A stretch of DNA of 64,000 bases from Romanomermis culicivorax (Eukaryota; Nematoda; Enoplea; Mermithida; Mermithidae), in NCBI GenBank assembly GCA_963922205.1, contig CAWUHX010000040.1:479001-543000 (forward strand), given 5' to 3'. Positions within the stretch are counted from its first letter, which is position 1. The number at the start of each line of letters is the position of its first letter. Shown piece by piece: positions 2,440-59,084 of this stretch. Made by a program: the position numbers and the translations under genes. Under the pieces are notes generated by a model, which did no database searches, had not been told where the DNA came from, and saw only the letters and a program-made list of their open reading frames with translations.

Positions 2440-4490
2440 TGCGTTTTTTAGAATTTACAAACGGTGTAAACTTGAATAGTTTACTTTACACTCACATTTA
2501 CAATGCACTCAATTCACAACGTGAGTTTAAAGTAAGTTATTCAAGTCTTTAACAAAGACTAAATCAACTTACTTTACACTCACATTTACAATGCGAGTGT
2601 AAATTAAGTTATTCAAGTTTTTCACAATGCGAGTGTAAAGCTGGTTACTCAAGCTTTTTACAGTGCTAGTGTAAACTAAGTCAACTCACTCCATACTCAC
2701 ATTCACGATGCAAGTCTAAAATGAGTTATTCAAGTTTTTCACAATGCTAGAGACGATAACTCACATTACTTTGCACTCACATTTACAACGTAAGTGTAAA
2801 GTGAGTTAATCAAGTTTTTACAATGCTAGTGCAAGCTAAATTAACTTACTTTACACCCACATCCACGATGTAAAGTAAGTTACTTTACACTCATATGTAC
2901 AATGCAAGTATGGAGTAATTTATTTGAGTTTTTTACAGTGCGTGTGTAAACTAAGCTAACTTACTTTACACTCTCATTGACAATTCGACTACAAAAAAGT
3001 TACTCAAGTTTATAACAATGCTAGTGTAAAACAAGTCAACTTACTTTCCACTCTCATTTACAATTTGAGTACAAAAAGTTACTCCAGTTTACTACAATGC
3101 TAGTGTAAGCCAAGTTAACTTACTTTACACTCACATTCACAATGCAAGTGTGAAGTAAGTTATTCAAGTTTCTCACAAAGCTGATGTAAAACAAGTTAAC
3201 TTACTTTACACTCACATTCACAATGCAAGTGCAAAGTAAATTCTTCGAGCTTTAAACAATTCTAGTGTAAACTAAGTTGAATCACTTTACACTAACATAT
3301 ACAATGCCGCTGTAAAGTACGTTGTTCAAGTTTTTCCAATGCTGGTGTAAACTAAGTTAACTTACTACACACTCACATTTACAATGCAACTGTGAAATAA
3401 GTTTTTCACTTCACACTCATCTTTTCAATGCAAGTGTAAAGTAAGTTATTCAAGTTTTTCACAATGTCAGTGTAAACGTAGTCACCTTACTTTGCACCAA
3501 CATTTACAATGTAAGTGTAAAGTGAGTTAATCAATTTTTTACAATGCTGGTATTAACAAGTTAACTTACTTTACACTCACATTCACTATGCAAGTGAAAA
3601 GTAAGTTACTCAAGTTGTTACAATGCTAGTTTAAACTTGGTTAATTTACTTCACACTCACCTTTGCAATGCAAGTGTAAAGTAAGTTCTTCAAATTTTTG
3701 ACAATGCTAGTGTAAACTAGGTTACCACTTACTTTACACTCACATTTACAATGTGGGTGTAAAGTACGTTGTTCAAGTTTTTACAATGCAGGTGTAAACT
3801 TATTTAAACTACTGTCCACTCACATTTACAATCCAAGTGTGAAATAAGTTGTTCAAGTTCTTCATAATGTCAGTGTAAACGTAGTCACCTTACTTTGCAC
3901 CAACATTTACAATGCAAGTGTAAAGTGAGTTAATCAATTTTTTACAATGTTGGTATTAACAACTTAACTTACTTTACACTCACATTCATAATGCAAGTGT
4001 AAAGTAAGTTACTCAAGTTGGTACAATGGTAATGTAAAATAAGTTAATTTACTTCAAATTCGCCTTTGCAATGCAAGTGTAAAGTAAGTTATTCAAGCTT
4101 TTGACAATGCTAGTGTAAAGTAGGTTATCACTTACCTCACACTCACATTTACAATGTGGGTGTAAAGTACGTTATTTCAAGTTTTTACAATGCGAGTGTA
4201 AACTAGATTTAACTTACTTCACACTCACATCTTACAAAGCAAGGTGTGAAATAAGTTATTCAAGTTTTCCACAATGTCAGTGTAAACGTAGTCACCTTAC
4301 TTTGCACCAACATTTACAATGCAAGTGTAAAGTGATTTAATCAAGTTTTTACAATGCTGGTGTTAACAAGTTAACTTACTTTGCACTCATATTCACAATG
4401 CAAGTGTAAAGTAAGTTGCTCAAGTTGTTACAATGTGACTGTAAAGTAAGTTATTCAAATTTACAATGTAAATGAAAGTGTAAAAAAATT
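2440..4490. repeat. 81-bp hairpin minisatellite, PARN intron 17 (copy 1)
   Basis: Tandem unit of about 81 bp, roughly 25 copies. Each unit contains AACTTACTTTACACT, then a spacer of about 16 bp (CACATTCACAATGCA), then AGTGTAAAGTAAGTT, which is the exact reverse complement of the first arm. Every unit can therefore fold into a 15-bp hairpin. It lies in the intron before the last PARN exon. Confidence 0.9.
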
Positions 4491-8886: not shown

Positions 8887-11800
8887 TCATTTATTATTCT
8901 CCAATTTCATTTTTTTAAAACGTAAATCATCTTGATTTTTTAAAATGTTTAAGGAATCGGAATCGGAATCGATATTATTATTGTTATTTTGTTTTAACGA
9001 TTCCACATTTTTCGATTTTTCTTTTCGCGAAACGTGAAATTTGGAATTAGATCCAATCGACGATTCTTGTTCAATAAAATATTCAATACTCGGTTTTAAT
9101 CGCCACCGTTGATCTTGATTATCACCCTTTGTTCGAAGGATTAAATTTTGTTGAACTGAAAAAACAATAGTGTAAAGTGCTTTTTTTAGGATTTACAAAC
9201 GGTGTAAACTTGAATAGCTTACTTTACACTCACATTTACAACGTGAGTTTAAAGTAAGTTATTCAAGTCTTTTACAAAGACTAATTCAACTTACTTTAAA
9301 CTCACATTTACAATGCGAGTGTAAATTAAGTTATCCAAGTTTTTCACAATGCGAGTGTAAAGCTGGTTACTCAAGCTTTTTACAGTGCTAGTGTAAACTA
9401 AGTCAACTCACTCCATACTCACATTCACGATGCAAGTGTAAAATGAGTTATTCAAGTTTTTCACAATGCTAGAGACGATAACTCACATTACTTTGCACTC
9501 ACATTTACAACGTAAGTGTAAAGTGAGTTAATCAAGTTTTTACAATGCTAGTGTAAGCTAAATTAACTTACTTTACACCCACATTCACGATGTAAAGTAA
9601 GTTACTTTACACTCATATGTAAAATGCAAGTGTGGAGTAAATTATTTGAGTTTTTTACAGTGCGTGTGTAAACTAAGCTAACTTACTTTACACTCACATT
9701 CACAATGCAAGTGTAAAGTAAGTTATTCAAGTTTCTCACAAAGCTGATTTAAAACAAGTCAACTTACTTTACACTCACATTCACAATGCAAGTGTAGAGT
9801 AAGTTATTCAAGTATTTTACAATGCTAGTGTAAACTACGTTAATTTTTTGCAGTCACTTTTACAATGCAAGTGCAAAGTAAATTCTTCGAGCTTTAAAAA
9901 ATTCTAGTGTAAACTAAGTTAAATCACTTTACACTAACATATACAACGCCGCTGTAAAGTACGTTGTTCAAGTTTTTTCCAATGCTGGTGTAAAGTAAGT
10001 TATTCAAGTTTTTCAGAATGTCAGTGTAAAGTGAGTTAATCAAGTTTTTACAATGCGAGTGTGAACTAGGTTAACTTACTTCACACTAATCTTTACAATG
10101 CAGGTGTAAAGTAAGTTATTCAAGTTTTTCACAATGTCAGTGTAAACGTAGTCACCTTACTTTGCACCAACATTTACAATGTAAGTGTAAAGTGAGTTAA
10201 TCAATTTTTTACAATGCTGGTATTAACAAGTTAACTTACTTTACACTCACATTCACAATGCAAGTGTAAAGTAAGTTATTCAAGTTTTTCACAATGTCAG
10301 TGTAAACGTAGTCACCTTACTTTGCACCAACATTTACAATGTAAGTGTAAAGTGAGTTAATCAATTTTTTACAATGCTGGTATTAACAGGTTAACTTACT
10401 TTACACTCACATTCACTATGCAAGTGTAAAGTAAGTTATTCAAGTTGTTACAATGCTAGTGTAAACTATGTTAACTTACTTCACACTAATCTTTACAATG
10501 CAAGTGTAAAGTAAGTTATTCAAGTTTTTCACAATGTCAGTGTAAACGTAGTCACCTTACTTTGCACCAACATTTACAATGCAAGTGTAAAGTGAGATAA
10601 TCATATTTTTACAATGCTGGTGTTAACAAGTTAACTTACTCTACACTCACATTCACAATGCAAGTGTAATGTAAGTTACTCAAGTTGTTACAATGCTAGT
10701 GTAAACTAAGTTAATTTACTTCACACTCACCTTTGCAATGCAAGTGTAAAGTAAGTTATTCAAGCTTTTGACAATGCTAGTGTAAACTAGGTTATCACTT
10801 ACTTTACACTCACATTTACAATGTGGGTGTAAAGTACGTTGTTCAAGTTTTTACAATGCAGGTGTAAACTTATTTAAACTACTGTCCACTCACATTTACA
10901 ATCCAAGTGTGAAATAAGTTGTTCAAGTTTTTCACAATGTCAGTGTAAACGTAGTCACCTTACTTTGCACCAACATTTACAATGCAAGTGTAAAGTGAGT
11001 TAATCAATTTTTTACAATGCTGGTATTAACAAGTTAACTTACTTTACACTCACATTCACAATGCAAGTGTAAAGTAAGTTTATCAAGTTGTTACAATGCG
11101 AGTGTAAACTATGTTAACTTACTTCACACTAATCTTTACAATGCAAGTGTAAAGTAAGTTATTCAAGTTTTTCACAATGTCAGTGTAAACGTAGTCACCT
11201 TACTTTGCACCAACATTTACAATGCAAGTGTAAAGTGAGATAATCATATTTTTACAATGCTGGTGTTAACAAGTTAACTTACTCTACACTCACATTCACA
11301 ATGCAAGTGTAATGTAATTTACTCAAGTTGTTACAATGCTAGTGTAAACTAAGTTAATTTACTTCACACTCACCTTTGCAATGCAAGTGTAAAGTAAGTT
11401 ATTCAAGCTTTTGACAATGCTAGTGTAAAGTAGGTTATCACTTACTTTACACTCACATTTACAATGTGGGTGTAAAGTACGTTATTCAAGTTTTTACAAT
11501 GCAGATGTAAACTAATTTAAATTACTGCGCACTCACATTTACAATCCAAGTGTGAAATAAGTTGTTCAAGTTCTTCACAATGTCAGTGTAAACTTAGTCA
11601 CCTTACTTCGCATCAACATATACAATGCAAGTGTAAAGTGATTTAATCAAGTTTTACAATGCTGGTGTTGACAAGTTAACTTAATTTACACTCACATTCA
11701 CAATGCAAGTGTAAAGTAAATTGCTCAGGTTGTTACGATGCGAGTGTAAACTAGGTTAACTTACTTTACACTCGCATTAACAATGCACTCACGTTCACAA

Positions 11801-37059: not shown

Positions 37060-37782
37060 AAGGCGATGAGGGGCCAACCATGGAGGAAGCCCACCTACGG
37101 TAACTCAACCCCTACACTAGAAAAACCAGTACGTAGGAGAAGAGGAATGGTGGTGCCCCAGATCTAGGCACAGATTGCTTTGCAAGGTCCAGGCCGAACT
37201 ACGTTCAAGACCATCCTGGTAGCCAGAAAAGGAGTGCCCTGCCCATTGGAGTGGTCAAAGTCACCATCGCCTAAAGAACCTGGTAGGGGCTGGATTGCAA
37301 TTTGGAGGGAGTAGCCCCAAAGACTTGTTTTCAGAGGGAGAACTGTTATGCAGCTCTGGACCTCAGTATGGGACTCAGGCTGCAGAAAATGTACAATAGA
37401 TAGATTGCAAGCAAGGAAAATTTTGGGACTAGAAATAAGTTAATGCCGTCTTGGTCTAGTGGTTATCATCTCTGACTGCTAGTCTCCAGAACCAGGTTCG
37501 ATTGTGGGTGTAACCCGAAATTGAATTTCTGGTAGCTGGCCTAGGCAGACACAGCCTTTCATCCTCTCGGGGTAGATAAATTGTGTTGGCCAGCTTGGAA
37601 CGCTACTTGCCGGGGTCCACTCAGCCCAGTTAGCATGTTGGCGATAGTGCGGCGAATGAGGAGGTGGGCCTATTCCATTATGAGGTAGGTAGCCAATCAA
37701 GTCCTGCTTGTCAGGCAGACACCAGCCTCTGGAATGTGGCCTCCACTAGGCGGTAAAAAGCACCCAGAGAGCACCTCTCATA
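37060..37782 (+). mobile_element. SINE-like element(s) with tRNA-derived head
   Basis: A GC-richer block. 37445-37514 has an RNA polymerase III A box (TGGTCTAGTGG) and B box (GGTTCGATT). After it comes CATCCTCTCGGGGTAGATAAA, close to a central motif I remember from widespread invertebrate SINEs. The block continues on the far side of the LTR element at 47063-47130, so the retrotransposon landed inside it. 37060-37440 may be a separate older repeat. Confidence 0.6.
37445..37514 (+). other. tRNA-like sequence (SINE head, not a functional tRNA)
   Basis: D-arm-like TGGTCTAGTGGTTATCATC, an anticodon-like CTGACTGCTAGTC and T-arm-like GGTTCGATT in tRNA order and spacing. The two sides of the acceptor stem do not pair (GCCGTCT against TGGGTGT), so it is a decayed tRNA-derived promoter, not a tRNA gene. 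Confidence 0.6.
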
Positions 37783-38675
37783 TGTAACAACCAGATTTGT
37801 GTGAGGTACTTTACTTTCAACCAACGGTCGATACGGCGGGAACAACGGGGGGCGCGGGTGGTACGTGTACAATAAACAACGGATGATCGACGGTCGCTTG
37901 AACGTCGACAATAAAAACGCGTTTCGATTTATAATATGAACGGGGGCCTCGGTTTAAGTTGCTTTCAGATAATCGGCCGCTTGCAAATATATATATAAAG
38001 GACGGGGCGGGCGCGGAAGTTGAAATCAAAAATTACAAGAATAAGAAAATGATCAAATCATGCTTTGCTTCTTCTTTTATACGGCGATTTTGGCCACTCC
38101 CTGGGCGTTGCGGGAGGTCGAGCTTCTGTCCATCTTTTTCCGCCAATCGTCGTTTCCTGCTACGCTTTTATGCTTACTTAGTTACGCCTCTCTAACGCTT
38201 TCCTGGTACTGTATGCTTTCTGTGCTTTGCTTGCTTCCTACGGTGGGCTTGGCCACACCTTTGTGCTTCTGTGCATGCTTCCTGTATCGGTTTCTCTGTA
38301 TACACATGTTTTGTGGGGCCGCTGCTACCGTTACACTTGAGACTACTGTCTGGCGGGGCTCCTACGTATTTTACTGTGTGCAGGTGTTGTTTACGATTTT
38401 TACGGGGAATTACGGTAGCTGTGGAATGTGTAGTTTAGTGTAGGTTCTAGGGGAACAGCTGCCGTTTGTGCAAATTAATTAGGGCATCTTAATTGGGCTA
38501 CCGGGGTGTGAACGGATCAAAATAAGGTACTTCACGTAATTTTATAGGAATGTTTGGGTGTGAATCCCAGACACCCTTGAGATGATAAAATGTGAAAATA
38601 AAATAATATCTAATAAATGTCTATCACATACAGTATGCTACATATTTACAGTACGGCTTTAGCAGGTACGTTACA
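37783..38675 (-). repeat. 3' LTR (893 bp)
   Basis: Left-hand LTR, 3' in the sense of the element, directly preceded in that sense by the polypurine tract. Differences from the other LTR are mostly CpG in one copy against TpG or CpA in the other. Confidence 0.93.
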
Positions 38676-38688
38676 TTTCCCTCCTTCC
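38676..38688 (-). promoter_or_regulatory. polypurine tract
   Basis: GGAAGGAGGGAAA in the element's sense lies flush against the 3' LTR. It is the plus-strand primer for reverse transcription. Confidence 0.85.
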
Positions 38689-38706
38689 GGAGTTGAACAT
38701 CCTCGT

Positions 38707-41700
38707 TCAAGGCTTTCGAGGTTGAGGAGAGGTGGGGGTAGATTCGTTAGCTGCTTTCTGAGTGTAGAAAGGGGTTGTCTCGTTTACATGCGCCGTAAAT
38801 GTGGTATCCTTATGGGGGTGTTTGAGTGTAACTTTGGGGTACATGAAATTCGTAACTGTATAGGGCCCGTTTTGGCGAGGGAGGAATTTGGGAGTCAACC
38901 CTTGTTTACATGAATGATTTTTGTAGAGAATAAGATCACCTGCCTTGTAATGTATGTTCTGAGCATGCTTGTTATACTGACAGGTATAGTGGGCTTGGGC
39001 TTTTTGCAAACTTTTCTGCACGGTTGAGAGTGCTTCTGTAAAATGCGATTTTACACGAAGGGCATAATCGTCTAAATCAACCATGTAGGACATGGGGAAA
39101 AAATTTAAAGCTGCGTCTGATGGCAGATTAGCTTGCCTACCGTGGAGTAGTTCAAATGGGGGATAGGATGTGCTATCATTTTTATGAATGTTGATCGAAA
39201 AGACGGCATATGGGAGATAAGTATCCCAATCAGTATGATTTGAATTGATGTACATGCGGATACGGGTGGCTAAGGTTTGGTTGCAATGCTCAACTTCTCC
39301 ATTTGCAATGGGATGGTATGGGGTGGTATGAATTTTCTGAGTGTTGCATAAACTGGTGATCCGTGAGAAGAGATCGGATACAAAATCGGAGCCACGATCA
39401 CAATGGATTTTTTTTGGGGACCCATGACGGCAAACAATTTTGGTTACGAATAGCTTGGCAATAGTGGCTGCAGTGATGTCAGGGGTCGGGAATGCCTCTA
39501 CATACTTTGTGAAATAATCGATGAAGACGACAATGAATCGGTTGCCGTCTTCAGTGAGGGGTAAGGGTCCCATGCAATCAACACCGACTCTATCAAATGG
39601 GCCAGTCGGCTGAATTGGTACCAAGTTTGCATGCACTTTGTGTCGGAGGGCTTTCTGTGTCTGGCATGGGTGACAAGTTTTGCAGTTACGTTTGATATCA
39701 CGGCTCATTAGGGGCCAAAAATATTTTTGTCTGAGCAGGTGTAAAGTTTTTCTGGCAGCGAAATGACCTGTGAATTTGCTGTCATGATGTGAGGCGATGA
39801 GATGCTGGACTTGTGACTTGGGAATGTATAGTTTTGCTTGTTTGTCGACTATACGGAAGAGGATGTTTTGACGCACTGCGAATTTGATCTGAGTAAGGGG
39901 GTGTTTTTGGGCGATTTTTGCTAAAATGCTTTTGACAGTTGGATCAGTGCATTGGAGTTCGGCGAAATTTTTCTGTTGTTCTTCTTGTTCAGTTGCTTCA
40001 GCTTCCAAAACCGAATTGATAGTGGATATTTTGGGGCGGGATTCTAATTGCTCAATATCAAAGGATTGTTTTGCTGTCTGTGAGGGGAATCGAGAAACTG
40101 CATCTGCGTTGCGGTTAGCAGTGCCTTTCTTAGGTTGAATGTCTAGCTGAATTCCGTAGAGGGCTGATCCCCAACGGGCAATGCGAGGGGACGGGTTTTC
40201 TTTTTGTAGGACTGCCTGAACTGCTGTGTGGTCAGTGTGTACAATGACATGTTGCTGGAAAAGGTAGGGGCGGAAATACTTGACAAACTCGACTACTGCA
40301 AGGGTTTCCAACTCAGTTATCGGGTAGTTGCGTTCTGCGGGTTTCAATGTGCGGCTCCCAAAAGCAATGGGGCGATCCTGACCTTTACTATCTAGCTGAC
40401 TGAGAATGGCGCCAATTCCGAGTTTTGAGGCGTCAGTTTGCAGAATAAACGGTTTTGTGAAATCGGGATGCTGCAGTATTGGGGCATGAATGAGTAATTC
40501 TTTTAGCTTAGTGAATGCGTTTTGCTGTTCGGGGCCGAAGGAAAATCCAGAATTCTTTTTGAATAGTGATGTGAGTGGGCTAGAAACTTGAGAGCAATTT
40601 GGGATAAATCTGCGATAATATGAGGGTAGGCCAAGGAATGATTTAACTTCTTTTGAGCTTTTGGGTGTGGGTATGTCATAAATGGCCTGTACCTTATGGG
40701 GATCTGGTGAAATGCCTTGCTGAGAAATGACGTGGCCTAAGTATTGGACTTGGGGCTGGCAGAATTTGCATTTTTGTATGTTTAGTTTAAGGCCTGCTTG
40801 TGAGAATCGGGCAAGAATAGTGTCTAAACGTTCCAGCATTTGGGCATGGGAGTCTGCGAATACCAAAACATTGTCGAGATATACAAGGCATGTGTTCCAT
40901 TGCAGACCCGAAAGAATAACATCCATTAACCTTTGGAATGTGGCTGGGGCATTGGTGAGTCCAAAAGGGAGGTAATTGAATTGATACTGGCCGGCTGAGC
41001 AATTAAAGGCAGTTTTTTCTCTGTCGGCTTGTGCTATGGGAATGGAATAATATGCATTCGATTGGTCAAGGGACGTAAAATATTTCATTCCACGTAGGGT
41101 GTCTAGAATTTCGTCTGTACGGGGCAAGGGGTAGGTATCTTTTTTGGTTACTTTATTTAGACCTCGAAAATCAATGCATAAACTATGGCCTCCGTCTTTT
41201 TTGGGGACTAAAACTGTGTTGGTACACCATGGAGAATTGCTTTGGCTTATGACACCTGCTGCTGCGAGTTGCTCAACTTCTGCTTGTATGATTTGTTTTT
41301 CTTTTGGGGAAGTCCGATAAAGTTGTCTACGTAGGGGTTGGGAGCCATTGGTGTCAATTGTACGCGAAAGGAGGGTGGTTCTACCTACATGCATTTTGGA
41401 TTTAGCATATAATGTGGGATACTTTGATAGGGCGCGTAGGAGTTGCATTTTCTTGGTTTCTGTGAGGTCACTGGAGGTCAAATTGACGTTTTCTTTTAAC
41501 CATGTGAATGTATCAAAACGGTTGGGCTGGTTTTGCGTTGAAGGGGTTAGATTAGCGGGAGCATTTTGTTTTGGGATGTAACATGAGACTGTACCAATGC
41601 ATGTTCCAGGGTAAAGAATTTGAGCTGTGTCCTGTGTGTTTAGGACGGATATGCGTATGCGACTGTTTTGATTTTCAGAGACACAAGCTGCAAAATGGAC

Positions 41701-43506
41701 TTTGGGATTCTGTTTGGGTTTTGGGGTGAATTCAAGCTGTTTGACCTGTAAGTACGATTTGGGCAATGGGACAGTGAATTCAGTTACTGTACGGGGTGGT
41801 AATTCTAATTTTTCGTCTAAATAAGTTCTACCACGAGTCGAAAGAGGGCTATATTCGAGGCCATCACAGGGTAGTATGACATTGCCAAATTTGACCTGAG
41901 ATTTTTGATTGTTGATAGTATATACCGAAAATCGACTGAGAAAGTTTTTGCCTAGAAGGATGTCTGCTGTGCAATCTTTTTGGACATGGACCATGATTGT
42001 TTCCTGGATTGTTTGGGCTGTGACTGTGACAAAAGTGGTCCCTACAAAGTGAATCGGAAGATTATTTGCGGCTTTTGCTTGGACTAGCGGGGGTTTCATG
42101 TCTAACTGTAGGATTTGAGTGATTTGGGAATCAATGAGTGAGTAAACTGCACCAGTGTCAATCATGCCTTTTGTCATTAATTTGCCGTTAAGTGTGACTG
42201 GAATATGAGGTGTATGTTTCTCAGGTACGTTTTGGGGTGGCTTATTTGATGCAGATTGGTGAATTTGATTAATGAGTTCGATTGCAGGAGTTCGGGGGGT
42301 ATCAATATCGACAAGGACGTATTTCTGCTGCGTTTGTGCCCCACGACGGTTAGCTAATTCTAAGAGAGCATGGTCGAATGATGGGGGTATGGTCTCATGT
42401 AAATGTCTGTTGTTTGATGGTATTTCGTATGCATGTTCATGTGTGACCTGATGCTTTGGGGAGGGGAAATATTTTCGAAGAACGAGAAAGGAATAAAAGA
42501 CGCCAGCAATAACTACAGTGATAACGGCTAGATTGATAAAAATTTGCAGGGGTCCTTTGAGTAAATTGTTTAATCCGTCCATGAGACTTTGGGTGGTACC
42601 ACTTATTACATGTTCTATGCCTTGACCGGCACCAGAGAGGGTATTTCCAAGTGCTTGGCCAGTGCCTGAGATCATGTTGTAAACTGTATCGGAATTGAGA
42701 GACATTTGGGCAGTGTAATTGACGAGTTTTTTGACAACGTTTTCCAGAGTGTGAGTTTTGTAAATGTATTGTTTCAAAAAGAGTAAGTTGGTTGAAATAG
42801 TTGCAAGTTGATCATGAAAAATTGCGGGTGTGTTAAAATGGAAAAGGGAAAAATTTTGGTTCCAGACGATTTCTAAAGGTAAATTTGTGACATGTGGGGA
42901 TCCTGTTTCACTGATCCATGTATTATTCTGTTTGTAGAGAGCGACATGCATGTGATGGCAATCAACAGTTTCTGAAAAAGGGGTCAAATCGTTGCCTCCT
43001 GGATTTGAAAACATGAGTTCGGTTCCTAGGAGAACGGGCAAAAGTTTGTAGCATGTTTGGTTGATTCTGTGGTTGTAAAAGATTGTAGATGCATTTACCT
43101 GCTTGCAGGGCCAGACTGTGAGGGCTTCTCCTGTGAATTCTGCTACTATGTCGGTTCTTTGTAGAAATGCACGCGCTCCAAGGGTTGCATCAAGACGTAA
43201 GATTTGCCATACGAGATCAAGGTGACGCTGTGCCTGTCTGCATAATTCACTCCATACGTTTTTGAAATTTTGAATTTCGAATTCCTGTATTTTGTCTGCT
43301 AGATAGTTTAGTTTCGCATTAATGGGTTCAAAATCGTATAGTGTAGTATGAGTTTCGTTGGTTTTTGGGGTTAAAAATGCATTATGATGTGGGGTGCTTT
43401 TGTCTAATTGTACGATAATGCCTTGTTCGGTTAGAATGCTGTCTTGGATTTCTGGGCAATTGGGGTTCGAAAAAACTGTATTTTTAACCGAGAATGCACC
43501 TTGTAG
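38707..43506 (-). CDS. Env-like stem and membrane anchor fused to protease-RT-RNase H-integrase
   Basis: The frame is open from just after the UAG. The first ATG is at 43041, giving 1444 residues. Numbering from it: 20-160 Env-like stem with sequons NNT, NFS, NYT; 166-189 a membrane segment (IFINLAVITVVIAGVFYSFL) followed by basic RK; 290-370 aspartic protease with IDTGA at 294; about 540-790 RT with FTSLDQ (D659), LPFGL and YLDN (721-724); 860-985 RNase H with TDAS (D870), HTD (D937), NAD (D980); 1080-1300 integrase with an HHCC finger and D1155, D1215, E1251 (exact D35E spacing); 1391 GPY/F module. It ends 32 nt before the LTR. YLDN replaces the usual YxDD, which should cripple RT. Confidence 0.9.
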   Translation of the reverse strand, partial: LQGAFSVKNTVFSNPNCPEIQDSILTEQGIIVQLDKSTPHHNAFLTPKTNETHTTLYDFEPINAKLNYLADKIQEFEIQNFKNVWSELCRQAQRHLDLVWQILRLDATLGARAFLQRTDIVAEFTGEALTVWPCKQVNASTIFYNHRINQTCYKLLPVLLGTELMFSNPGGNDLTPFSETVDCHHMHVALYKQNNTWISETGSPHVTNLPLEIVWNQNFSLFHFNTPAIFHDQLATISTNLLFLKQYIYKTHTLENVVKKLVNYTAQMSLNSDTVYNMISGTGQALGNTLSGAGQGIEHVISGTTQSLMDGLNNLLKGPLQIFINLAVITVVIAGVFYSFLVLRKYFPSPKHQVTHEHAYEIPSNNRHLHETIPPSFDHALLELANRRGAQTQQKYVLVDIDTPRTPAIELINQIHQSASNKPPQNVPEKHTPHIPVTLNGKLMTKGMIDTGAVYSLIDSQITQILQLDMKPPLVQAKAANNLPIHFVGTTFVTVTAQTIQETIMVHVQKDCTADILLGKNFLSRFSVYTINNQKSQVKFGNVILPCDGLEYSPLSTRGRTYLDEKLELPPRTVTEFTVPLPKSYLQVKQLEFTPKPKQNPKVHFAACVSENQNSRIRISVLNTQDTAQILYPGTCIGTVSCYIPKQNAPANLTPSTQNQPNRFDTFTWLKENVNLTSSDLTETKKMQLLRALSKYPTLYAKSKMHVGRTTLLSRTIDTNGSQPLRRQLYRTSPKEKQIIQAEVEQLAAAGVISQSNSPWCTNTVLVPKKDGGHSLCIDFRGLNKVTKKDTYPLPRTDEILDTLRGMKYFTSLDQSNAYYSIPIAQADREKTAFNCSAGQYQFNYLPFGLTNAPATFQRLMDVILSGLQWNTCLVYLDNVLVFADSHAQMLERLDTILARFSQAGLKLNIQKCKFCQPQVQYLGHVISQQGISPDPHKVQAIYDIPTPKSSKEVKSFLGLPSYYRRFIPNCSQVSSPLTSLFKKNSGFSFGPEQQNAFTKLKELLIHAPILQHPDFTKPFILQTDASKLGIGAILSQLDSKGQDRPIAFGSRTLKPAERNYPITELETLAVVEFVKYFRPYLFQQHVIVHTDHTAVQAVLQKENPSPRIARWGSALYGIQLDIQPKKGTANRNADAVSRFPSQTAKQSFDIEQLESRPKISTINSVLEAEATEQEEQQKNFAELQCTDPTVKSILAKIAQKHPLTQIKFAVRQNILFRIVDKQAKLYIPKSQVQHLIASHHDSKFTGHFAARKTLHLLRQKYFWPLMSRDIKRNCKTCHPCQTQKALRHKVHANLVPIQPTGPFDRVGVDCMGPLPLTEDGNRFIVVFIDYFTKYVEAFPTPDITAATIAKLFVTKIVCRHGSPKKIHCDRGSDFVSDLFSRITSLCNTQKIHTTPYHPIANGEVEHCNQTLATRIRMYINSNHTDWDTYLPYAVFSINIHKNDSTSYPPFELLHGRQANLPSDAALNFFPMSYMVDLDDYALRVKSHFTEALSTVQKSLQKAQAHYTCQYNKHAQNIHYKAGDLILYKNHSCKQGLTPKFLPRQNGPYTVTNFMYPKVTLKHPHKDTTFTAHVNETTPFYTQKAANESTPTSPQPRKP

Positions 43507-45366
43507 CTATTCTATTATCATGTGTGTTTGCGTGAGTTTGATGGGATGTGTATTTTTGTACTCGAAAGGGCATAAGTTTTCAAATGCTGTTTCATTCCAG
43601 ATAATGGATCCGTCGGCTGTGACACAATGACCTGATGTCAGTTTGCATGACCCCAGGTCACCTAATGTACCTGTCATAGATTTTCCATTCCAAGATGCTA
43701 GTTGTCCTATTTCTATGATGACGTTAGTGACTGAGGTACAATGGTCTGTACAACACCATGTGTATTCTACGCTTAGGGAGTTATTTGTTGACCAAAATCC
43801 TGGTTGGGTTTCGTATAATTTCTGACCATTGTGTTCTTTGTCTATAACGATTGCCTTACAAACATGTGGGGTTAGATTTTGCATTTCGGTTTGGTCGAAG
43901 ACAATACCTTTTGATCCAAAAAATCCTGTATTAGTACAAATTTTGCATTTGTGAACACTGCATTTGTATGCGTCTGTAATGTGGGGCTTAGTGGAGGGGA
44001 TATAGATTTTTCCGAATGTCTGTACGGGTTTGTCTACTGTGGAAGGGGGCATGCATGATACAAGTTTTGGTATGCTGACTGAGTGACCGCTTAATGAAGT
44101 TCCACACATCTGAAATTGGGCACTACACGATGTGGGGATTATTATACAAAGAAAAATACAAAACATCGGCCAATGGAATGTTTTAGTGGAGGCGGCGGGG
44201 CACTGTGTTTTTTCGTTCTGGTCGGTTTGGCGTGGCAGCTTTTGGTGTTGTTCTGTTTTGGGTTGAGGGGGTGGCCGGTTTGAAATCTGAACGGTCTGTA
44301 AAATTTTAGAAGTTGAGTCATGGGATGGGGTTTGGACTTGCTTACTTGTGGGGGTTGGTAGAAGTGTTTGGCGGGGCCGGAATTGGTAGGGTTCGGGGGT
44401 TAGGCCATGGAGAAGGGATAACAAGTTGTGGCCTGTTTTCGAAAGGGTTTCGGGGGCGATGGGCAGCATAGTGTCTTGCTTTCGGGGGATCTTGTAGCCT
44501 ACAGGGATGGTGGGTGGCGATTTTTCGATTTTTGCGGCTTCAGGCGTGGGGGGTGGTGACATGGCGCACCAATCGGGTATGTCCAGATCAAGGACGTATT
44601 CGTCACTACGGCGGTGGGTGTTGGGCATGATAGTTTCTAAAGTAGTCTGAGGGCCGTTAGTTATGGCGGGTAATTTTGAGTAAAATGCGGGGTCGTCAAT
44701 GTCCATGAGGGGTTGGGGTTGCCTGTACTCAATGCAATTTTGAATATTACGACTCTGCTGATTTGGGCAATACCTGCTTGTATGACCTCTCTGCTTGCAT
44801 AGAAAACATTGAAAATTTGAGTAGGGTTTCCAAAGGCAGTTATCTGATCTATGTCCTGTTTGGGAGCAGTGGATGCATTGGCTTTTACAATCACGTGTAC
44901 TGTGATTATTACGGAAACAGATTTCACATGATCTTCGGGAGCCTACTGATTTACAATTACGAGCTACGTGTCCAATTTGTCCACACTGGAAGCATGTGGG
45001 CTGCCTAGGGGTGGTATTGTTCCTGTAAGCATTATTCCTACTGTAAGTGTTGTTACTGAAATTGTTGTAGCTACTCTGTTGTGGGGATTGGGGTTTTTGT
45101 TTGATCTGCAACTGTAAATCTTTTACTTGTTGTTCTAACTGATGCAAAAGGTCCTGTTGGTCTGTATTTTTGGTGAGGGAAAAGATGGGTTCGGGTTTTG
45201 GGGGTATGAAGGGAAGGGCGTTGGACTTTAACTCATTTCTAAGGATTTGCTGTTCAATGTAAGCTGCTTCGTCTGACATTTCTTTTAGAGTTGCGAACCT
45301 TCTATACTTAATTGCTTCCCTGATTTCGTTTTGCATGCCTTCTACAAAGAGGGGTTTTATGATCAT
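43507..45366 (-). CDS. Gag C-terminal, four zinc knuckles, then Env-like ectodomain
   Basis: 619 codons from the ATG at 45366; the frame is open further up to about 45555, where it joins the gag N-part by a frameshift. Residues 1-90 are the capsid end and a coiled-coil-like QLEQQVKDLQLQ stretch. Four CCHC knuckles in tandem (C125-C138, C147-C160, C164-C177, C187-C200) form a nucleocapsid. Residues 210-390 are a Pro-rich linker. At 397-416 a hydrophobic signal-like segment (FHWPMFCIFLCIII) precedes a Cys-rich stretch with about 20 cysteines and N-glycosylation sequons (NNS, NET). I read this as the start of an envelope-type glycoprotein. The ORF ends at UAG (43507-43509), followed by CTA, and the same frame stays open beyond it. 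Confidence 0.8.
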   Translation of the reverse strand: MIIKPLFVEGMQNEIREAIKYRRFATLKEMSDEAAYIEQQILRNELKSNALPFIPPKPEPIFSLTKNTDQQDLLHQLEQQVKDLQLQIKQKPQSPQQSSYNNFSNNTYSRNNAYRNNTTPRQPTCFQCGQIGHVARNCKSVGSRRSCEICFRNNHSTRDCKSQCIHCSQTGHRSDNCLWKPYSNFQCFLCKQRGHTSRYCPNQQSRNIQNCIEYRQPQPLMDIDDPAFYSKLPAITNGPQTTLETIMPNTHRRSDEYVLDLDIPDWCAMSPPPTPEAAKIEKSPPTIPVGYKIPRKQDTMLPIAPETLSKTGHNLLSLLHGLTPEPYQFRPRQTLLPTPTSKQVQTPSHDSTSKILQTVQISNRPPPQPKTEQHQKLPRQTDQNEKTQCPAASTKTFHWPMFCIFLCIIIPTSCSAQFQMCGTSLSGHSVSIPKLVSCMPPSTVDKPVQTFGKIYIPSTKPHITDAYKCSVHKCKICTNTGFFGSKGIVFDQTEMQNLTPHVCKAIVIDKEHNGQKLYETQPGFWSTNNSLSVEYTWCCTDHCTSVTNVIIEIGQLASWNGKSMTGTLGDLGSCKLTSGHCVTADGSIIWNETAFENLCPFEYKNTHPIKLTQTHMIIE

Positions 45367-45532
45367 TTCTCGTGCGTCTGTGTTAAAGTTAGGGTAGGCG
45401 AGGGTTGCGAGATGTTCTAGATCAAATAGGAATTCCGTTACTGTTTCTGAACACTTTTGTTTTCTTTCGCCTAAGAATTGTTGATGTAGCTCATTATCTC
45501 TATTGTTTGGGAAAAATGCCTGTAATGCGACT

Positions 45533-46165
45533 TTATACTGTTCGTATGTGTGGGTTAGGGTTTTCGGAATTGGCTAAGCTTTTGAATTTTGCTAACGCGG
45601 CTCCTCCTAAATGAATTTCTAAACATGCCAACTTTAACTGTACGTCTGTATCTTTCATGCCTTGGAGTGCCATGAATTGTTCTAATCTTTTGTTCCATTC
45701 ACCAAAATGTTGGGTCACGCCACCCGTGAATACTGTAGGTTTCGCGTAGAAATTATTTGCCATGTTATTACGAATGTTTGCTGTTCTTAGATCGTCTATT
45801 AGGGTAGGGTTTACTGTATTCTGATTCAATTGTGTGCGTAGGGTACGAAAATGTTCTGAAAATAGATCGTTTATCTGCTCTCTAACGATTTCTCCTAAAT
45901 GATCTTACGTTTGGTGGGTCATTCTTGGTTTACGCTGGGATTTCTGCTTAAATGCTTCAATTTTTGCTTCACGCTGTATTCGTTTAAATGTATCGCTTAA
46001 TGTTTCGTTGGAGGGGGTTTCCAGTTTGCTTTCTATGAATACTGTCTTACTGTAGGAAATGATTACTACTGTATTATCTAATGCTTCTAAATGCCCGGAT
46101 AAGAGTACACCTAATTGGGGGCAGGGAGTTCCAGTGGTTAACGTAATGGTACGGTCACCAAAATA
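45533..46165 (-). pseudogene. gag, N-terminal part (broken)
   Basis: Capsid-type Gag of a Ty3/gypsy element. The frame is open from inside the 5' LTR, through the primer site, to a TAA at 45905. It continues in the same frame to 45533 with an ATG at 45829. The latter part has the family pattern FTGG...W..RLEQFM...K...LEIHLGGAALAKF. Near 45550 the frame shifts by one base in a run of A and C, and the rest of Gag continues in the frame of the next entry. The true start is uncertain: the ATG in the LTR, a start between the primer site and 45905, or 45829. Confidence 0.7.
46142..46160 (-). promoter_or_regulatory. primer binding site
   Basis: In the element's sense TGGTGACCGTACC starts 5 nt after the 5' LTR. 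TGG pairs with the CCA end of a tRNA, as expected. I cannot name the tRNA. Confidence 0.6.
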
Positions 46166-47058
46166 TGTAACGACCAGATTTGTGTGAGGTACTTTACTTT
46201 CAACCAACGGTCGATACGGTGGGAACAATGGGGGGCGCGGGCGGTACGTGTACAATAAACAACGGATGATCGACGGTCGCTTGAACGTCGACAATAAAAA
46301 CGTGTTTCGATTTATAATACGAACGGGGGCCTCGGTTTAAGTTGCTTTTGGATAATCGGCCGCTTGCAAATATATATATAAAGGACGGGGCGAGCGCGGA
46401 AGTTGAAATCAAAAATTACAAGAATAAGAAAATGATCAAATCACGCTTTGCTTCTTCTTTTATACGGCGATTTTGGCCACTCCCTGGGCGTTGCGGGAGG
46501 TCGAGCTTCTGTCCATCTTCTTCCGCCAATCGTCGTTTCCTGCTACGCTTTTATGCTTACTTAGTTACGCCTCTCTAACGCTTTCCTGGTACTGTATGCT
46601 TTCTGTGCTTTGCTTGCTTCCTACGGTGGGCTTGGCCACACCTTTGTGCTTCTGTGCATGCTTCCTGTATCGGTTTCTCTGTATACACATGTTTTGTGGG
46701 GCCGCCACTACCGTTACACTTGAGACTACTGTCTGGCGGGGCTCCTACGTATTTTACTGTGTGCAGGTGTTGTTTACGATTTTTATGGGGAATTACGGTA
46801 GCTGTGGAATGTGTAGTTTAGTGTAGGTTCTAGGGGAACAGCTGCCATTTGTGCAAATTAATTAGGGCATCTTAATTGGGCTACCGGGGTGTGAACGGAT
46901 CAAAATAAAGTACTTCACGTAATTTTGTAGGAATGTTTGGGTGTGAATCCCAGACACCCTTGAGACGATAAAATGCGAAAATGAAATAATATTTAATAAA
47001 TGTCTATCACATACAGCATGCTATATATTTACAGTACTGCTTTAGCAGGTACATTACA
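46166..47058 (-). repeat. 5' LTR (893 bp)
   Basis: Right-hand LTR, 5' in the sense of the element. It has the same length as the left LTR and differs at about 25 positions, 24 of them transitions. Contains TATATATATAAA in the plus sense and TTTATATATATATTT in the element's sense, a possible core promoter. Confidence 0.93.
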
Positions 47059-47062
47059 CATA

Positions 47063-48069: not shown

Positions 48070-50245
48070 AATTTTAGTAGTTGTAGAGGCCCCTACAGAG
48101 GGTACACAAAACATACCCATGTACAAAACATGTATATCAAAGTATACAGCCTTAATTGTGTGGAGCAATACACAGGGTGTAGAAGGTACACTCAAAGCTT
48201 CAATGTTTAAAATTTGACTTCCATGTAGAAAGTAGGCTTGAAGTTTCAACGTGTAAAATTCGACTTCCGTGTAGAAAGTATAGTGGAAGCTTCAATGTGT
48301 AACATTACACTTCTATGTGCAAAGTACACCAGAAGCTTCAATGTGTAAAATTCTACTTCCATGTAGAAAGTATGCTCAAAGCTTCAATGTGTAAAATTCC
48401 ACTTCCATGTAGAAAGTGTGGTTGAAGCTTCAATGTGTAACATACATTACACTTCCATTTAGAAAGTACAGTTGAAGCTTCAATGTGTAACATTACACTT
48501 CCATGTGCAAAGTACGCCAGAAGCTTCAATGTGTAAAATTCCACTTCCATGTAAAAAGTGTGGTTGAAGCTTCAATGTGTAACATACATTACACTTCCAT
48601 TTAGAAAGTACAGTTGAAGCTTCAATGTGTAACATTACACTTCCATGTGCAAAGTCCACCTGAAGCCTCAACATGTGAAATTCAACATCCATGTAGAGTG
48701 TGTGCTCAAAGCTTCAATGTGTAACATACATTACAGTTCCATGTAGAAAGTACAGTTGAAGCTTCAATGTGTAACATTACACTTCCATGTGCAAAGTACA
48801 CCTGAAGCTACAACATGTGAAATTCGACATCCATGTAGAAAGTATGCTCAAAGCTTCAATGTGTAACATACATTACAGTTCCATGTAGAAAGTACAGTTG
48901 AAGCTTCAATGTGTAACATTACACTTCCATGTGCAAAGTACGCCTGAAGCTACAACATGTGAAATTCGACATCCATGTAGGAAGTATGGTTGAAGCTTCA
49001 ATGTGTAACATACATTACAGTTCCATGTAGAAAGTAGGGTTGAAGCTTCGATGTAAAACATTACACTTCCATGTGCAAAGTACACCAGAAGGTTCAACAG
49101 GTAAAATTGGACTACCATATAGAAAGTATGCACAAAGTCTCAACGTGTAAGTTTTGACATCCATGCAGAAAGTATGATCCAAGCTTCAATAAGTAACATT
49201 GGACTTCCATGTCCAAAGTACGCCTGAAGCTTCAATATGTAAAATTTGATTTTCATGTATAAAGTATGCCTGAAGCTTCAACATGTAAGATTCGACTTCC
49301 ATGTCGAAAGTAGGCCCAAAGCTTCAATGTGTAACATTACACTTCCGTATGCAAAGTTCCCCAGAAGCTTCAACGTGTAAAATTCGACTTCCATGTAGAA
49401 AGTATAAGCTTAAATGTGTAACGTTTCACTTCCATGCAGAAAGTATGGTTGAAGCTTCAATGTGTAACGTTCCATTTCCATGTAGAAAATACGGCTGAAG
49501 CTTCAACATGCAAAACTGAACTTCCATGTAGAAAATATGCTCAAAGCTGTAACATGTAAATATGAGCATTGATATAGAAATTACGCCTCAGTTGACGCAG
49601 ATGTTAAAATTAGTGATGCAAAGCAACCCAGTAAATTTTAGTGTCACTCTTAGAACTTAATCATCTAACGGTTTTACTAATTTTTCTTACAAACTTTACG
49701 TGAAAAATTTGTTCAGGACACAATTTTTACTTAGTTGTGACACATTTTTCAATGAGATTCCTTATGCTTAAGCTGTGATTTTTGGAGCTTTTTTCCCAAT
49801 GTTTTGAGCCACAGTTTTCCATGCATTTTGTAAAAAGGGCCTGGAATAAGCAAAAATTGTGTCAATAGTGAGAAATGTGTCCCAAAAACAATGATCAAGC
49901 ATAGGAAATCATCAAAAAATTGTCCCCAAAAACTTTAAAAAAACCAAAACTATTAGATCATGAGATTCTTTGACTCACATTAAAATTTTTTGGGAGACAT
50001 TGCATCATCAATTTTAATATCCTAGTTGGCTGAGGCGTACTTTCTACGTGAAATCAAATTTTACAAATTAAAGCTTCAGGCATACTTTCTACACCCCCTG
50101 TATTGCCCCACATCATATACGAATTCAGGTCCTATTACACTGTCAACTATACTTTCTACACCCTTGCATAACCTGACACAGTTATGGGTGTATGTTTTGT
50201 ACATGGCTATCTTTTGTGTACCTCCAAAGAACCTACTAATTTTTT
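48070..50245. mobile_element. foldback element with minisatellite arm, intron of astacin-like gene
   Basis: Outer inverted pair: GTACACAAAACATACCCATG at about 48100 against its near reverse complement near 50200. Inner inverted pair: 49575-49790 (GCCTCAGTTGACGCAGATG...) against 49840-50035 (...TAGTTGGCTGAGGC). Between outer and inner arms the left side carries 1.4 kb of tandem repeat, the right only about two units in inverse orientation. No transposase. The left end lies within about 15 nt of the acceptor of the exon at 48056. A half copy is at 62990-63372. Confidence 0.75.
48190..49570. repeat. GAAGCTTCAATGTGTAA minisatellite, 46-58-bp units
   Basis: About 25-28 units of GAAGCTTCAATGTGTAA(A/C)ATTxxACTTCCATGTAGAAAGTAxGxT. 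The units with ACATACATTACAC are about 10 bp longer. Many contain the palindromic GTGTAACATTACAC. The array forms the expanded left arm of the foldback element. Confidence 0.9.
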
Positions 50246-56920: not shown

Positions 56921-57547
56921 TATTTAAAACTCAAAAATTTAAATATTTTAAAAAGATGAGTAAATTGAGTTTTAAAAAGTGGAAAAAACCACCAAAAGCG
57001 CTAAAGATGGCTGAATAGGGTGGGAACTGCATTACGTGGCTATCTTTACTAAAAGATGATTTGCTTTTGTTAACTTACTCCCTGAGATTGTGCGGGATCA
57101 AGTCTTTTAGTTTTTGTTGATAAGTTTTTGTACTTGTCAAACTTAGAGCATTGAGGAACCATTCTGAGATACCATTATACGAACCACACGACAAATAGTT
57201 CAAATTAAAGCTGAAAAACAAAAACAGGCCATTTGACGCTTAGTTTGCAAACTTATATATTAAATTTTACTATATGATGTTTTGATTGAAATTTGTTCCG
57301 CATGGTGGATATGATCTGAAAAATTAATTTGTTATTTTTGCATGTTATTATAGACTTTGCTTGATGAGACGTTCTCGGGGGTTCAAATTCAAAGTTTCAC
57401 AAAATGTCGTCACAGAAGTAAAATTCTAAAACATGAATTCTTACTATTGTTATTATTATCATTATTATAAATATTATAATGATTGCTATTTTTGTTATTA
57501 ATATTATACATATTATTAATTTTATTAGTATTATTAACATTATTCAA

Positions 57548-58740
<1,193 letters not shown>

Positions 58741-59084
58741 AATTGTTATTACTATCATTTTTAAAGAATATGCTACAAAATTTGCTGCATTTCAATTTTC
58801 TTTTGCTTAAAAGTTCCAGTTTTTCTATTCTAACAGAGAGCATAAGACCCATTTGACAACTAGTCTAATTTGTTTAAATACGATGAGTTGTAGAATTGTC
58901 GAATTAAAATTGACGTATTCAGAACCGTTCCATTTATTCGAGATCCAACTTTGACATTACCAATATCTTGGAACCTAGAAAATCAAAGTTGAACAATAAA
59001 AATTATAGCACAAAACATTAGCAAATATACTTTAAACAAGTCTGATTTCCAATGCTATTAATCACAAATTGAATTCGGAGCTTG

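What the first reader, a model, noticed from the sequence alone, without database searches (positions are those of the whole stretch)
38676..46165. Retrotransposon with an Env-like glycoprotein placed between Gag and Pol
Seen: in one frame, after four zinc knuckles, comes a signal-like hydrophobic segment, a Cys-rich sequon-bearing ectodomain, a stem, a clear membrane segment (42549-42478), and only then the protease DTG, RT, RNase H and integrase. Nothing lies between the integrase and the polypurine tract. Known Env-bearing Ty3/gypsy and BEL elements carry env downstream of pol, so this order is unexpected. The topology works: Gag cytosolic, ectodomain lumenal, Pol on the cytosolic side. It would mean Pol is made as part of a membrane-anchored polyprotein.
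Basis: partly seen in the sequence, partly recalled or inferred. Interest (0 to 1): 0.88.

Follow-up and report, generated by a model that had tools for sequence, protein, structure and literature searches.

The report
Retrovirus-like element with envelope in middle
A very common jumping element in this genome carries a virus-type cell-entry (envelope) protein in the middle of its one long protein chain, between the shell proteins and the copying enzymes, instead of at the end where such proteins normally sit.

Summary
Confirmed. The window holds a 9.28-kb Ty3/gypsy-type element (minus strand; LTRs 37783-38675 and 46166-47058, TSD TATG) coding Gag, four CCHC knuckles, signal segment, Cys-rich ectodomain, TM, protease, RT, RNase H, integrase. 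This copy is defective.

The order belongs to a lineage. Of 150 gag-matched genome copies, 40 have one open frame of at least 2,200 codons; in 45 gag/env pairs the spacing is 1,600-1,657 nt. Four further families in this genome (env identity down to 32%) share the order, as does a public sequence of unknown host, P0006. Three other LTR families lack a membrane segment there.

The middle protein is a Monjiviricetes/gB-type (class III) fusion glycoprotein by sequence profiles; AlphaFold models were unusable.

Precedent: in-frame gag-env-pol is published for giant planarian Burro elements; Atlas and Anakin supply other parts of the pattern. So this is a new variant: compact, high-copy, multi-family. 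Likeliest mechanism: one membrane-threaded Gag-Env-Pol polyprotein; expression is untested, and splicing or internal initiation remain possible.

The parts
46166..47058 (-). 5' LTR (TGTAA...TTACA), TSD TATG at 47059-47062
   Evidence: 896-nt match at 97.2% between the two LTRs; ends and TSD read
46148..46165 (-). 5-nt spacer (46165-46161) and putative primer binding site beginning TGGTGACC (46160)
   Evidence: sequence directly after the 5' LTR; the matching tRNA was not tested
44647..45950 (-). Gag: capsid-like part (frame broken in this copy) and four CCHC zinc knuckles at 44994-44767; upstream limit approximate
   Evidence: zf-CCHC 4.3e-08; motif positions; 150 scored gag matches in the genome
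44170..44646 (-). Linker between Gag and Env, weakly constrained
   Evidence: dN/dS 0.50 over 151 usable pairs of 435
44119..44169 (-). Internal signal-like hydrophobic segment ending in CSA, a plausible signal peptidase site
   Evidence: hydrophobic segment at the same place in families B-F
42565..44118 (-). Env ectodomain, Monjiviricetes/gB-type fusion glycoprotein; TAG at 43507-43509 interrupts this copy
   Evidence: PF24664 29.3 bits on the middle piece (cut-off 27), 24.8 on the C-terminal piece, none on the N-terminal piece; herpesvirus gB-type chains in the PDB with the family profile; stop seen
42478..42534 (-). Env transmembrane helix
   Evidence: KD 2.31 over 19 residues
41932..42204 (-). 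Aspartic protease (IDTGA)
   Evidence: gag-asp_proteas 6e-08, residues 280-370 of the piece 43041-41902
40726..41208 (-). Reverse transcriptase core; this copy reads YLDN at the catalytic motif
   Evidence: RVT_1 2.4e-35
39703..40701 (-). RNase H, then integrase zinc-binding domain
   Evidence: RT_RNaseH_2 7.7e-38, Integrase_H2C2 1.8e-10
38707..39702 (-). Integrase core and GPY motif (38871); end of the frame
   Evidence: rve 2.3e-09
38676..38688 (-). Polypurine tract next to the 3' LTR
   Evidence: sequence GGAAGGAGGGAAA
37783..38675 (-). 3' LTR, TSD TATG at 37779-37782

Best explanation
SHOWN: this is one copy of a high-copy Ty3/gypsy-type family. Copies with open frames encode Gag, a glycoprotein that matches class III (Monjiviricetes/herpes gB-type) fusion proteins by sequence profile, and Pol in a single frame, in that order. 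The same order occurs in four other families of this genome and in a public sequence of unknown host. INFERRED: the genomic RNA is translated into one polyprotein that crosses the membrane twice. Gag stays in the cytosol, the internal signal segment sends the glycoprotein ectodomain into the ER lumen, and the second hydrophobic helix brings protease-RT-RNase H-integrase back to the cytosolic side. Signal peptidase would cut after the signal segment, and the element's own protease would free Gag and Pol on the cytosolic side. Particles would carry the fusogen for cell-to-cell or horizontal spread. In topology this resembles the flavivirus capsid-glycoprotein-replicase polyprotein (recalled) rather than a retrovirus.
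For: Order and homology. One frame: 40 of 150 gag-selected copies have open frames of at least 2,200 aa; 16 of 30 copies have no stop over 1,380 codons. Hydrophobic segments flank the ectodomain in the representatives of families B-F and none occur in three control LTR families. In family A only the second passes the 1.9 cut of that scan; the first is shorter, 2.19 over 15 residues. In A4, 14 columns have Cys in every row that has a residue there. Family A dN/dS in env parts outside the query used to pick the copies is 0.158 (N-terminal, 359 pairs) and 0.074 (middle, 406 pairs), against 0.093 in RT (378 pairs). No D.E.NPGP (2A-like) motif in the fetched loci. No acceptor-like splice site conserved between knuckles and signal or between TM and protease in a simple scan.
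Against: No transcript, protein or particle data. A 1:1:1 Gag:Env:Pol output would be unusual for a retroelement. In 10 of 12 family A copies looked at, an in-frame Met stands right at the hydrophobic segment (2 of 12 have none in the 140 codons), so separate initiation of Env is possible; the B and C representatives have no Met next to it. AlphaFold models were poor (mean pLDDT 36.0 and 38.6), so the fold rests on sequence profiles; an earlier profile (A1) reached gB only at E 1.2. Within families B and C, env pN/pS between copies is 0.59 and 0.58, and the TM segment of family A gives 0.22. The window copy is defective.
Confidence: 0.55

Rival explanations
1. Same genes, but Env and Gag-Pol are made separately: Env from a spliced RNA or from its own start codon at the signal segment, and possibly Gag-Pol from an RNA with env removed in frame. 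The single frame would then be a by-product of keeping the exon readable.
For: Retroviruses such as RSV and MLV make Env from spliced RNA (stated in PMC10309623, passages); so do errantiviruses (recalled). An in-frame Met lies at the signal segment in 10 of 12 family A copies looked at. A donor-like CAG|GTAAAT scores above threshold in 30 of 30 copies, but it lies inside env.
Against: Acceptor-like sites with score over 3.5 are about as frequent as in shuffles (8 against a mean of 6.5), and the four conserved in at least 12 of 30 copies lie in env or RT, not between knuckles and signal or between TM and protease. No spliced-out copy was noticed, but paired matches (45) need env by construction and the lists are truncated, so this is weak. 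The scan is simple and cannot exclude splicing.
Confidence: 0.32
2. Env is a passenger: acquired once, carried along in frame during a recent expansion, no longer used for transfer between cells.
For: pN/pS 0.59 and 0.58 within families B (28 pairs) and C (3 pairs); stops in env in 5 of 30 family A copies.
Against: Env is recognisable along its length in five families and P0006, with 14 Cys columns without exception in A4, and family A dN/dS in env is of the order of that in RT.
Confidence: 0.08
3. The middle segment is a membrane-spanning Gag extension or a captured host protein, not a viral fusogen.
For: The window's C-terminal piece scores under the Pfam cut-off (24.8 against 27) and its N-terminal piece gives no hit; structure models unusable.
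Against: All 68 scored genome matches to PF24664 (of 2,320 candidates) exceed its cut-off, best 75 bits. The A4 profile finds four herpesvirus chains at 1.5e-5 to 3.6e-3. It aligns along its length with P0003, an env-type protein behind what looks like a BEL-type integrase tail.
Confidence: 0.04
4. Chance insertion or assembly artefact in this copy.
For: None found.
Against: 108 scored copies, several families, and a separate database sequence.
Confidence: 0.01

Closest known systems
Burro giant gypsy-like LTR retrotransposons of planarians (Arkhipova and Yushenova 2019, PMC6431247; section 7 read)
   Same: env in frame between gag (with CCHC knuckles) and protease in one large ORF; env with hits to mononegavirus fusion glycoproteins; high copy number
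   Different: Burro exceeds 30 kb with MATH/TRAF, BCL2, dUTPase-like and other domains and a 4,873-aa ORF1; this element is 9.28 kb, with open frames around 2,486 codons in many copies, and none of these domains was hit in the six pieces scanned. Burro's env was related to gypsy Env (96.7% probability).
Atlas virus of hookworm (Belpaoviridae; PMC9094657, passages read)
   Same: One intron-free, stop-free polyprotein that includes Env
   Different: Env is last (Gag-Pol-Env), class II phlebovirus-like, and the pol is BEL-type
Anakin BEL-Pao elements of mosquitoes with chuvirus glycoprotein (PMC7642597, passages read)
   Same: Glycoprotein of the chuvirus group captured by an LTR element
   Different: BEL-Pao pol. 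[quoted passage not shown]
P0003/P0004 (public sequences of unknown host)
   Same: Homologous env; the two window pieces are 32% and 36% identical to P0003
   Different: In P0003 env follows what looks like the end of a BEL-type integrase (DUF5641, 16 bits, under its cut-off of 23.1), so env would be downstream of pol
Errantiviruses such as gypsy (recalled)
   Same: Ty3/gypsy pol with a viral env
   Different: Env is class I F-like, downstream of pol, from spliced RNA
Flavivirus polyprotein (recalled; works like, not a member)
   Same: Capsid, internal signal, lumenal glycoprotein, TM, cytosolic replicase in one chain
   Different: No relationship; different enzymes and replication

Membership tests
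Ty3/gypsy (Metaviridae) | PR-RT-RNase H-IN order | tested here: met
Ty3/gypsy (Metaviridae) | LTRs TG...CA, 4-6 bp TSD, PPT | tested here: met
   TGTAA...TTACA, TSD TATG, PPT
Ty3/gypsy (Metaviridae) | tRNA primer binding site | tested here: inconclusive
   TGGTGACC after a 5-nt spacer; no tRNA compared
Ty3/gypsy (Metaviridae) | No BEL or Copia markers | tested here: met
   No DUF5641, Peptidase_A17 or RVT_2 listed at E up to 1 for the six pieces scanned (markers recalled); GPY motif at 38871
Ty3/gypsy (Metaviridae) | RT placed inside a reference Ty3/gypsy tree | not tested
   No reference set in hand; only three other LTR families of this genome, Ty3-like by inspection, were compared, with weak inner support
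Monjiviricetes/class III fusion glycoprotein | Match to PF24664 over its cut-off | tested here: met
   Window middle piece 29.3 bits (cut-off 27), C piece 24.8 (below), N piece none; 68 of 68 scored genome matches over cut-off; 7 of 8 members of A4 at E up to 0.01
Monjiviricetes/class III fusion glycoprotein | Similarity to solved class III proteins | tested here: met
   With the A4 profile: 5c6t 1.5e-5 (sum of two weak stretches, i-values 2.1 and 0.043), 8y48 1.5e-4, 9jli 3.6e-3, all named glycoprotein B, and 9cu4 2.4e-4, named ORF8 (a gammaherpesvirus gB, recalled). With the earlier 4-row profile A1 only E 1.2.
Monjiviricetes/class III fusion glycoprotein | Class III fold | tested here: inconclusive
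   Mean pLDDT 36.0 and 38.6; no fold search made
Monjiviricetes/class III fusion glycoprotein | Fusion activity | not testable with these tools
   -
Burro | env in frame between gag and pol | tested here: met
   (in other copies; the window copy is broken)
Burro | Giant size and MATH/BCL2/dUTPase domains | tested here: not met
   9.28-kb element; none in the six pieces scanned
Burro | Close sequence kinship of pol and env | not testable with these tools
   No Burro sequence was at hand
Errantivirus | env downstream of pol | tested here: not met
   31 nt between integrase stop and 3' LTR

The most novel reading that the evidence does not exclude
A whole lineage of Ty3/gypsy proviruses, spread over more than one host, uses a flavivirus-like expression strategy. 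A single Gag-Env-Pol polyprotein crosses the ER membrane twice, is cut by signal peptidase on one side and retropepsin on the other, and builds enveloped particles with a herpes gB-type fusogen while its replication enzymes start life tethered to the membrane.
Probability: 0.35. Interest if true: 0.85.

Novelty: new variant of a known kind. Interest (0 to 1): 0.68.

Why it matters
Retroelements mostly keep env at the 3' end and make it from a separate RNA, which lets them make much Gag and little Pol and Env (recalled). A successful, many-family lineage that fuses all three in one frame would show that this separation is not required, or that regulation happens by an unknown route. It also gives a second, compact example beside Burro, with a gB-type fusogen. 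Because many copies keep the frame open, the expression question can be answered with ordinary RNA and protein data from the host.

Tried and rejected
Tried without result. Structure prediction of the window's 372-aa env stretch and of P0003 gave mean pLDDT 36.0 and 38.6, so no fold search was made. Env relatives in viral contigs and genome contigs: none. PHROGs scan of P0003: none. Nematode SL1 sequence in the genome: 0 exact matches; the host stays unidentified. Telomere pattern: not completed. Search for P0003 in this genome: not completed.

Considered and rejected: chance insertion; Gag extension; Cer1/CERV-like accessory protein (the Cer1 ORF is downstream of pol, passages); Troyka (no env, passages); FAST-like sORF2 of the MDG1 group (short ORFs upstream of gag, passages); 2A peptide (no D.E.NPGP in the fetched loci).

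Limits. Genome lists hold only the best-scoring candidates (108 of 3,897; 150 of 2,956; 68 of 2,320), so env-less copies cannot be excluded. The 30 family A copies were picked by similarity to env C-terminus plus protease, which lowers dN/dS there. Pairs under 80% identity in a segment were left out (151 to 435 of 435 pairs kept). In one search, 25 of 30 copies in register were used. In one search L039 gave no anchor and was dropped, and L041 has a stop. In one search L041 and L055 were not used. In one search the Met positions of 12 of 30 copies were printed. Searches read some loci on the wrong strand and crashed part-way; replace them.
Full report
WHAT IS IN THE WINDOW. On the minus strand lies an LTR element with LTRs at 37783-38675 and 46166-47058. 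They are part of a 896-nt match at 97.2%, start TGTAA and end TTACA, and are flanked by TATG on both sides (read). In element order come a putative primer site TGGTGACC; a Gag-like region with four CCHC knuckles (44994-44767); a linker; a signal-like segment (44169-44119); a Cys-rich ectodomain; a membrane helix (42534-42478); a protease with IDTGA; RT; RNase H; integrase with a GPY motif; and a polypurine tract that touches the 3' LTR. Only 31 nt lie between the integrase stop and the 3' LTR.

THIS COPY IS BROKEN. Gag upstream of about 45400 lies in another frame than the rest, env has one in-frame stop, and the RT motif reads YLDN. Copies with open frames exist in the genome.

THE ORDER IS A PROPERTY OF THE FAMILY. 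The window lies in a 359-Mb assembly of 595 contigs. A search with env C-terminus plus protease scored 108 matches (of 3,897 candidates), 94 to 100% identical to the window, 101 of them without a stop inside the match by my count of the rows. That query spans env and protease, so their adjacency in these matches is by construction; what it adds is the surroundings. Of the 30 best, 16 have no stop over 1,380 codons from gag tail to RT (one of these has 59 N), and 25 have none within env. A search with gag alone scored 150 matches (of 2,956 candidates); 40 of 150 sit in one open frame of at least 2,200 codons and 30 in at least 2,400, too long for a copy without env. Where both searches hit the same copy (45 pairs), the distance from gag to env C-terminus is 1,600-1,657 nt. 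The lists are truncated to the best candidates, so env-less copies could exist unseen.

MORE FAMILIES, AND ANOTHER SOURCE. A search with the Pfam model of the glycoprotein gave 30 loci. In all 30, env is followed by sequence matching the window's protease or RT (protease in 27 of 30, RT in 29 of 30). By env identity I group them as family A (13 loci, the window's), B (11; pieces 47-59% identical), C (3; 41-51%) and D (3; 32-43%). A fifth family, E, was met among four upstream stretches fetched next to other RTs (L072). Representatives of B, C and E are open over 1,160 to 1,239 codons; the D representative has one stop upstream of env. The public database gave P0006, a 1,500-aa protein whose host is not given, with PF24664 (46.9 bits), Gag and protease domains (19 and 26.3 bits, both a little under their cut-offs), a CCHC motif and a short end that resembles the start of RT, in the same order. 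It is 37% identical to the env piece searched, so it is not family A, but it could come from any host. The other three fetched stretches (L069-L071, Ty3-like by inspection) show no hydrophobic peak and no env between Gag and protease.

WHAT THE MIDDLE PROTEIN IS. The window's middle env piece matches PF24664, 'Monjiviricetes_fusion', at 29.3 bits (cut-off 27); the C-terminal piece scores 24.8 and the N-terminal piece nothing. The middle piece also shows likeness, under the cut-offs, to herpesvirus gB and Borna G. In the genome 68 of 68 scored matches exceed the cut-off, best 75 bits, and 14 control genomes give none. An alignment of four families, P0003, P0004 and two window pieces (A4) has 14 columns with Cys in every row that has a residue. 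As a profile it finds, among solved structures, three chains named glycoprotein B (1.5e-5, 1.5e-4, 3.6e-3) and one named ORF8 (2.4e-4; a gammaherpesvirus gB, recalled); the best of these sums two weak stretches. An earlier four-row profile reached gB only at E 1.2. This is sequence evidence for a class III fusion protein. AlphaFold gave unusable models.

SELECTION. Among the 30 family A copies dN/dS is 0.158 (env N-terminal part), 0.074 (middle), 0.058 (C-terminal), 0.223 (TM), 0.070 (tail), 0.061 (protease), 0.086 (linker to RT), 0.093 (RT) and 0.50 (linker before env). The env C-terminus, TM, tail and protease were in the query that picked the copies and are biased low; the other segments were not. 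Families B and C show pN/pS 0.59 and 0.58 over 28 and 3 pairs, that is, little recent constraint between near-identical copies. The evidence for constraint is therefore family A plus the conservation between families.

ORIGIN. P0003 carries a homologous env behind what looks like the end of a BEL-type integrase (DUF5641, 16 bits, under its cut-off). The env tree groups A, B and C with strong support, with D and E beside them; at a midpoint root P0006 falls with the two BEL-type proteins. The short pol tree supports an A-D group and is weak otherwise. An env of this type has thus probably sat downstream of BEL pol and between gag and pol of a Ty3 lineage; the direction of exchange is open.

HOW IT MAY WORK. 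Representatives of families B-F have a hydrophobic signal and a second hydrophobic helix on either side of about 520-545 residues (family A's signal is shorter and under the 1.9 cut of the 19-residue scan). In a single chain this puts Gag in the cytosol, the ectodomain in the lumen and Pol back in the cytosol. Signal peptidase and the element's protease could then cut it. I found no 2A motif in the fetched loci and no conserved acceptor-like splice site between the knuckles and the signal or between the helix and the protease. Against this, 10 of 12 family A copies looked at have an in-frame Met at the signal segment (2 of 12 have none), which would suit a separately started Env; the B and C representatives have no Met next to it. 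The scans are simple, and splicing or internal initiation is the main rival.

WHAT IS KNOWN. [quoted passage not shown] Atlas virus has one Gag-Pol-Env frame with a class II Env at the end (PMC9094657, passages). Anakin BEL-Pao elements took a chuvirus glycoprotein, and that paper places the envelope-like protein of Roo, Tas and Cer-7 downstream of the polyprotein (PMC7642597, passages). My searches for this order elsewhere turned up only Burro in what I opened; many listed papers were not opened. The preprint of Chary and Hayashi on envelope-carrying elements, seen only as a citation, is not held and may bear on this. I therefore file the element as a new variant: compact, gB-type, high copy and multi-family, with Burro as the structural precedent.

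Noticed in passing
L009-L038 (25 of 30 used), frame codons 150-225: Synonymous diversity dips to 0.015-0.039 in the N-terminal env of family A, against about 0.1 in many other stretches; recent conversion or an RNA signal.
   Followed up: no
window 43099 and the same site in L009-L038: Donor-like CAG|GTAAAT in the window copy; the site scores as donor-like in 30 of 30 copies. It may only reflect the codons.
   Followed up: partly
L010, L011, L018, L026, L028, first about 75 codons: In these copies the linker upstream of env has stops or another frame.
   Followed up: no
L047 codon 888: The family B representative's protease reads VDCGAT instead of DTG/DSG.
   Followed up: no
window 40702-41301: RT motif of the window copy reads YLDN.
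   Followed up: no
window 2876-4453, 9598-11787, 48178-49548, 57437-58763: Large tandem arrays, including 443 copies of ATT, under which lies a 304-aa Ile/Tyr-rich ORF.
   Followed up: no
whole genome G000: Other long single-frame elements with RT, several with frames of 2,011 to 2,340 aa; three sampled have no env between Gag and protease.
   Followed up: partly
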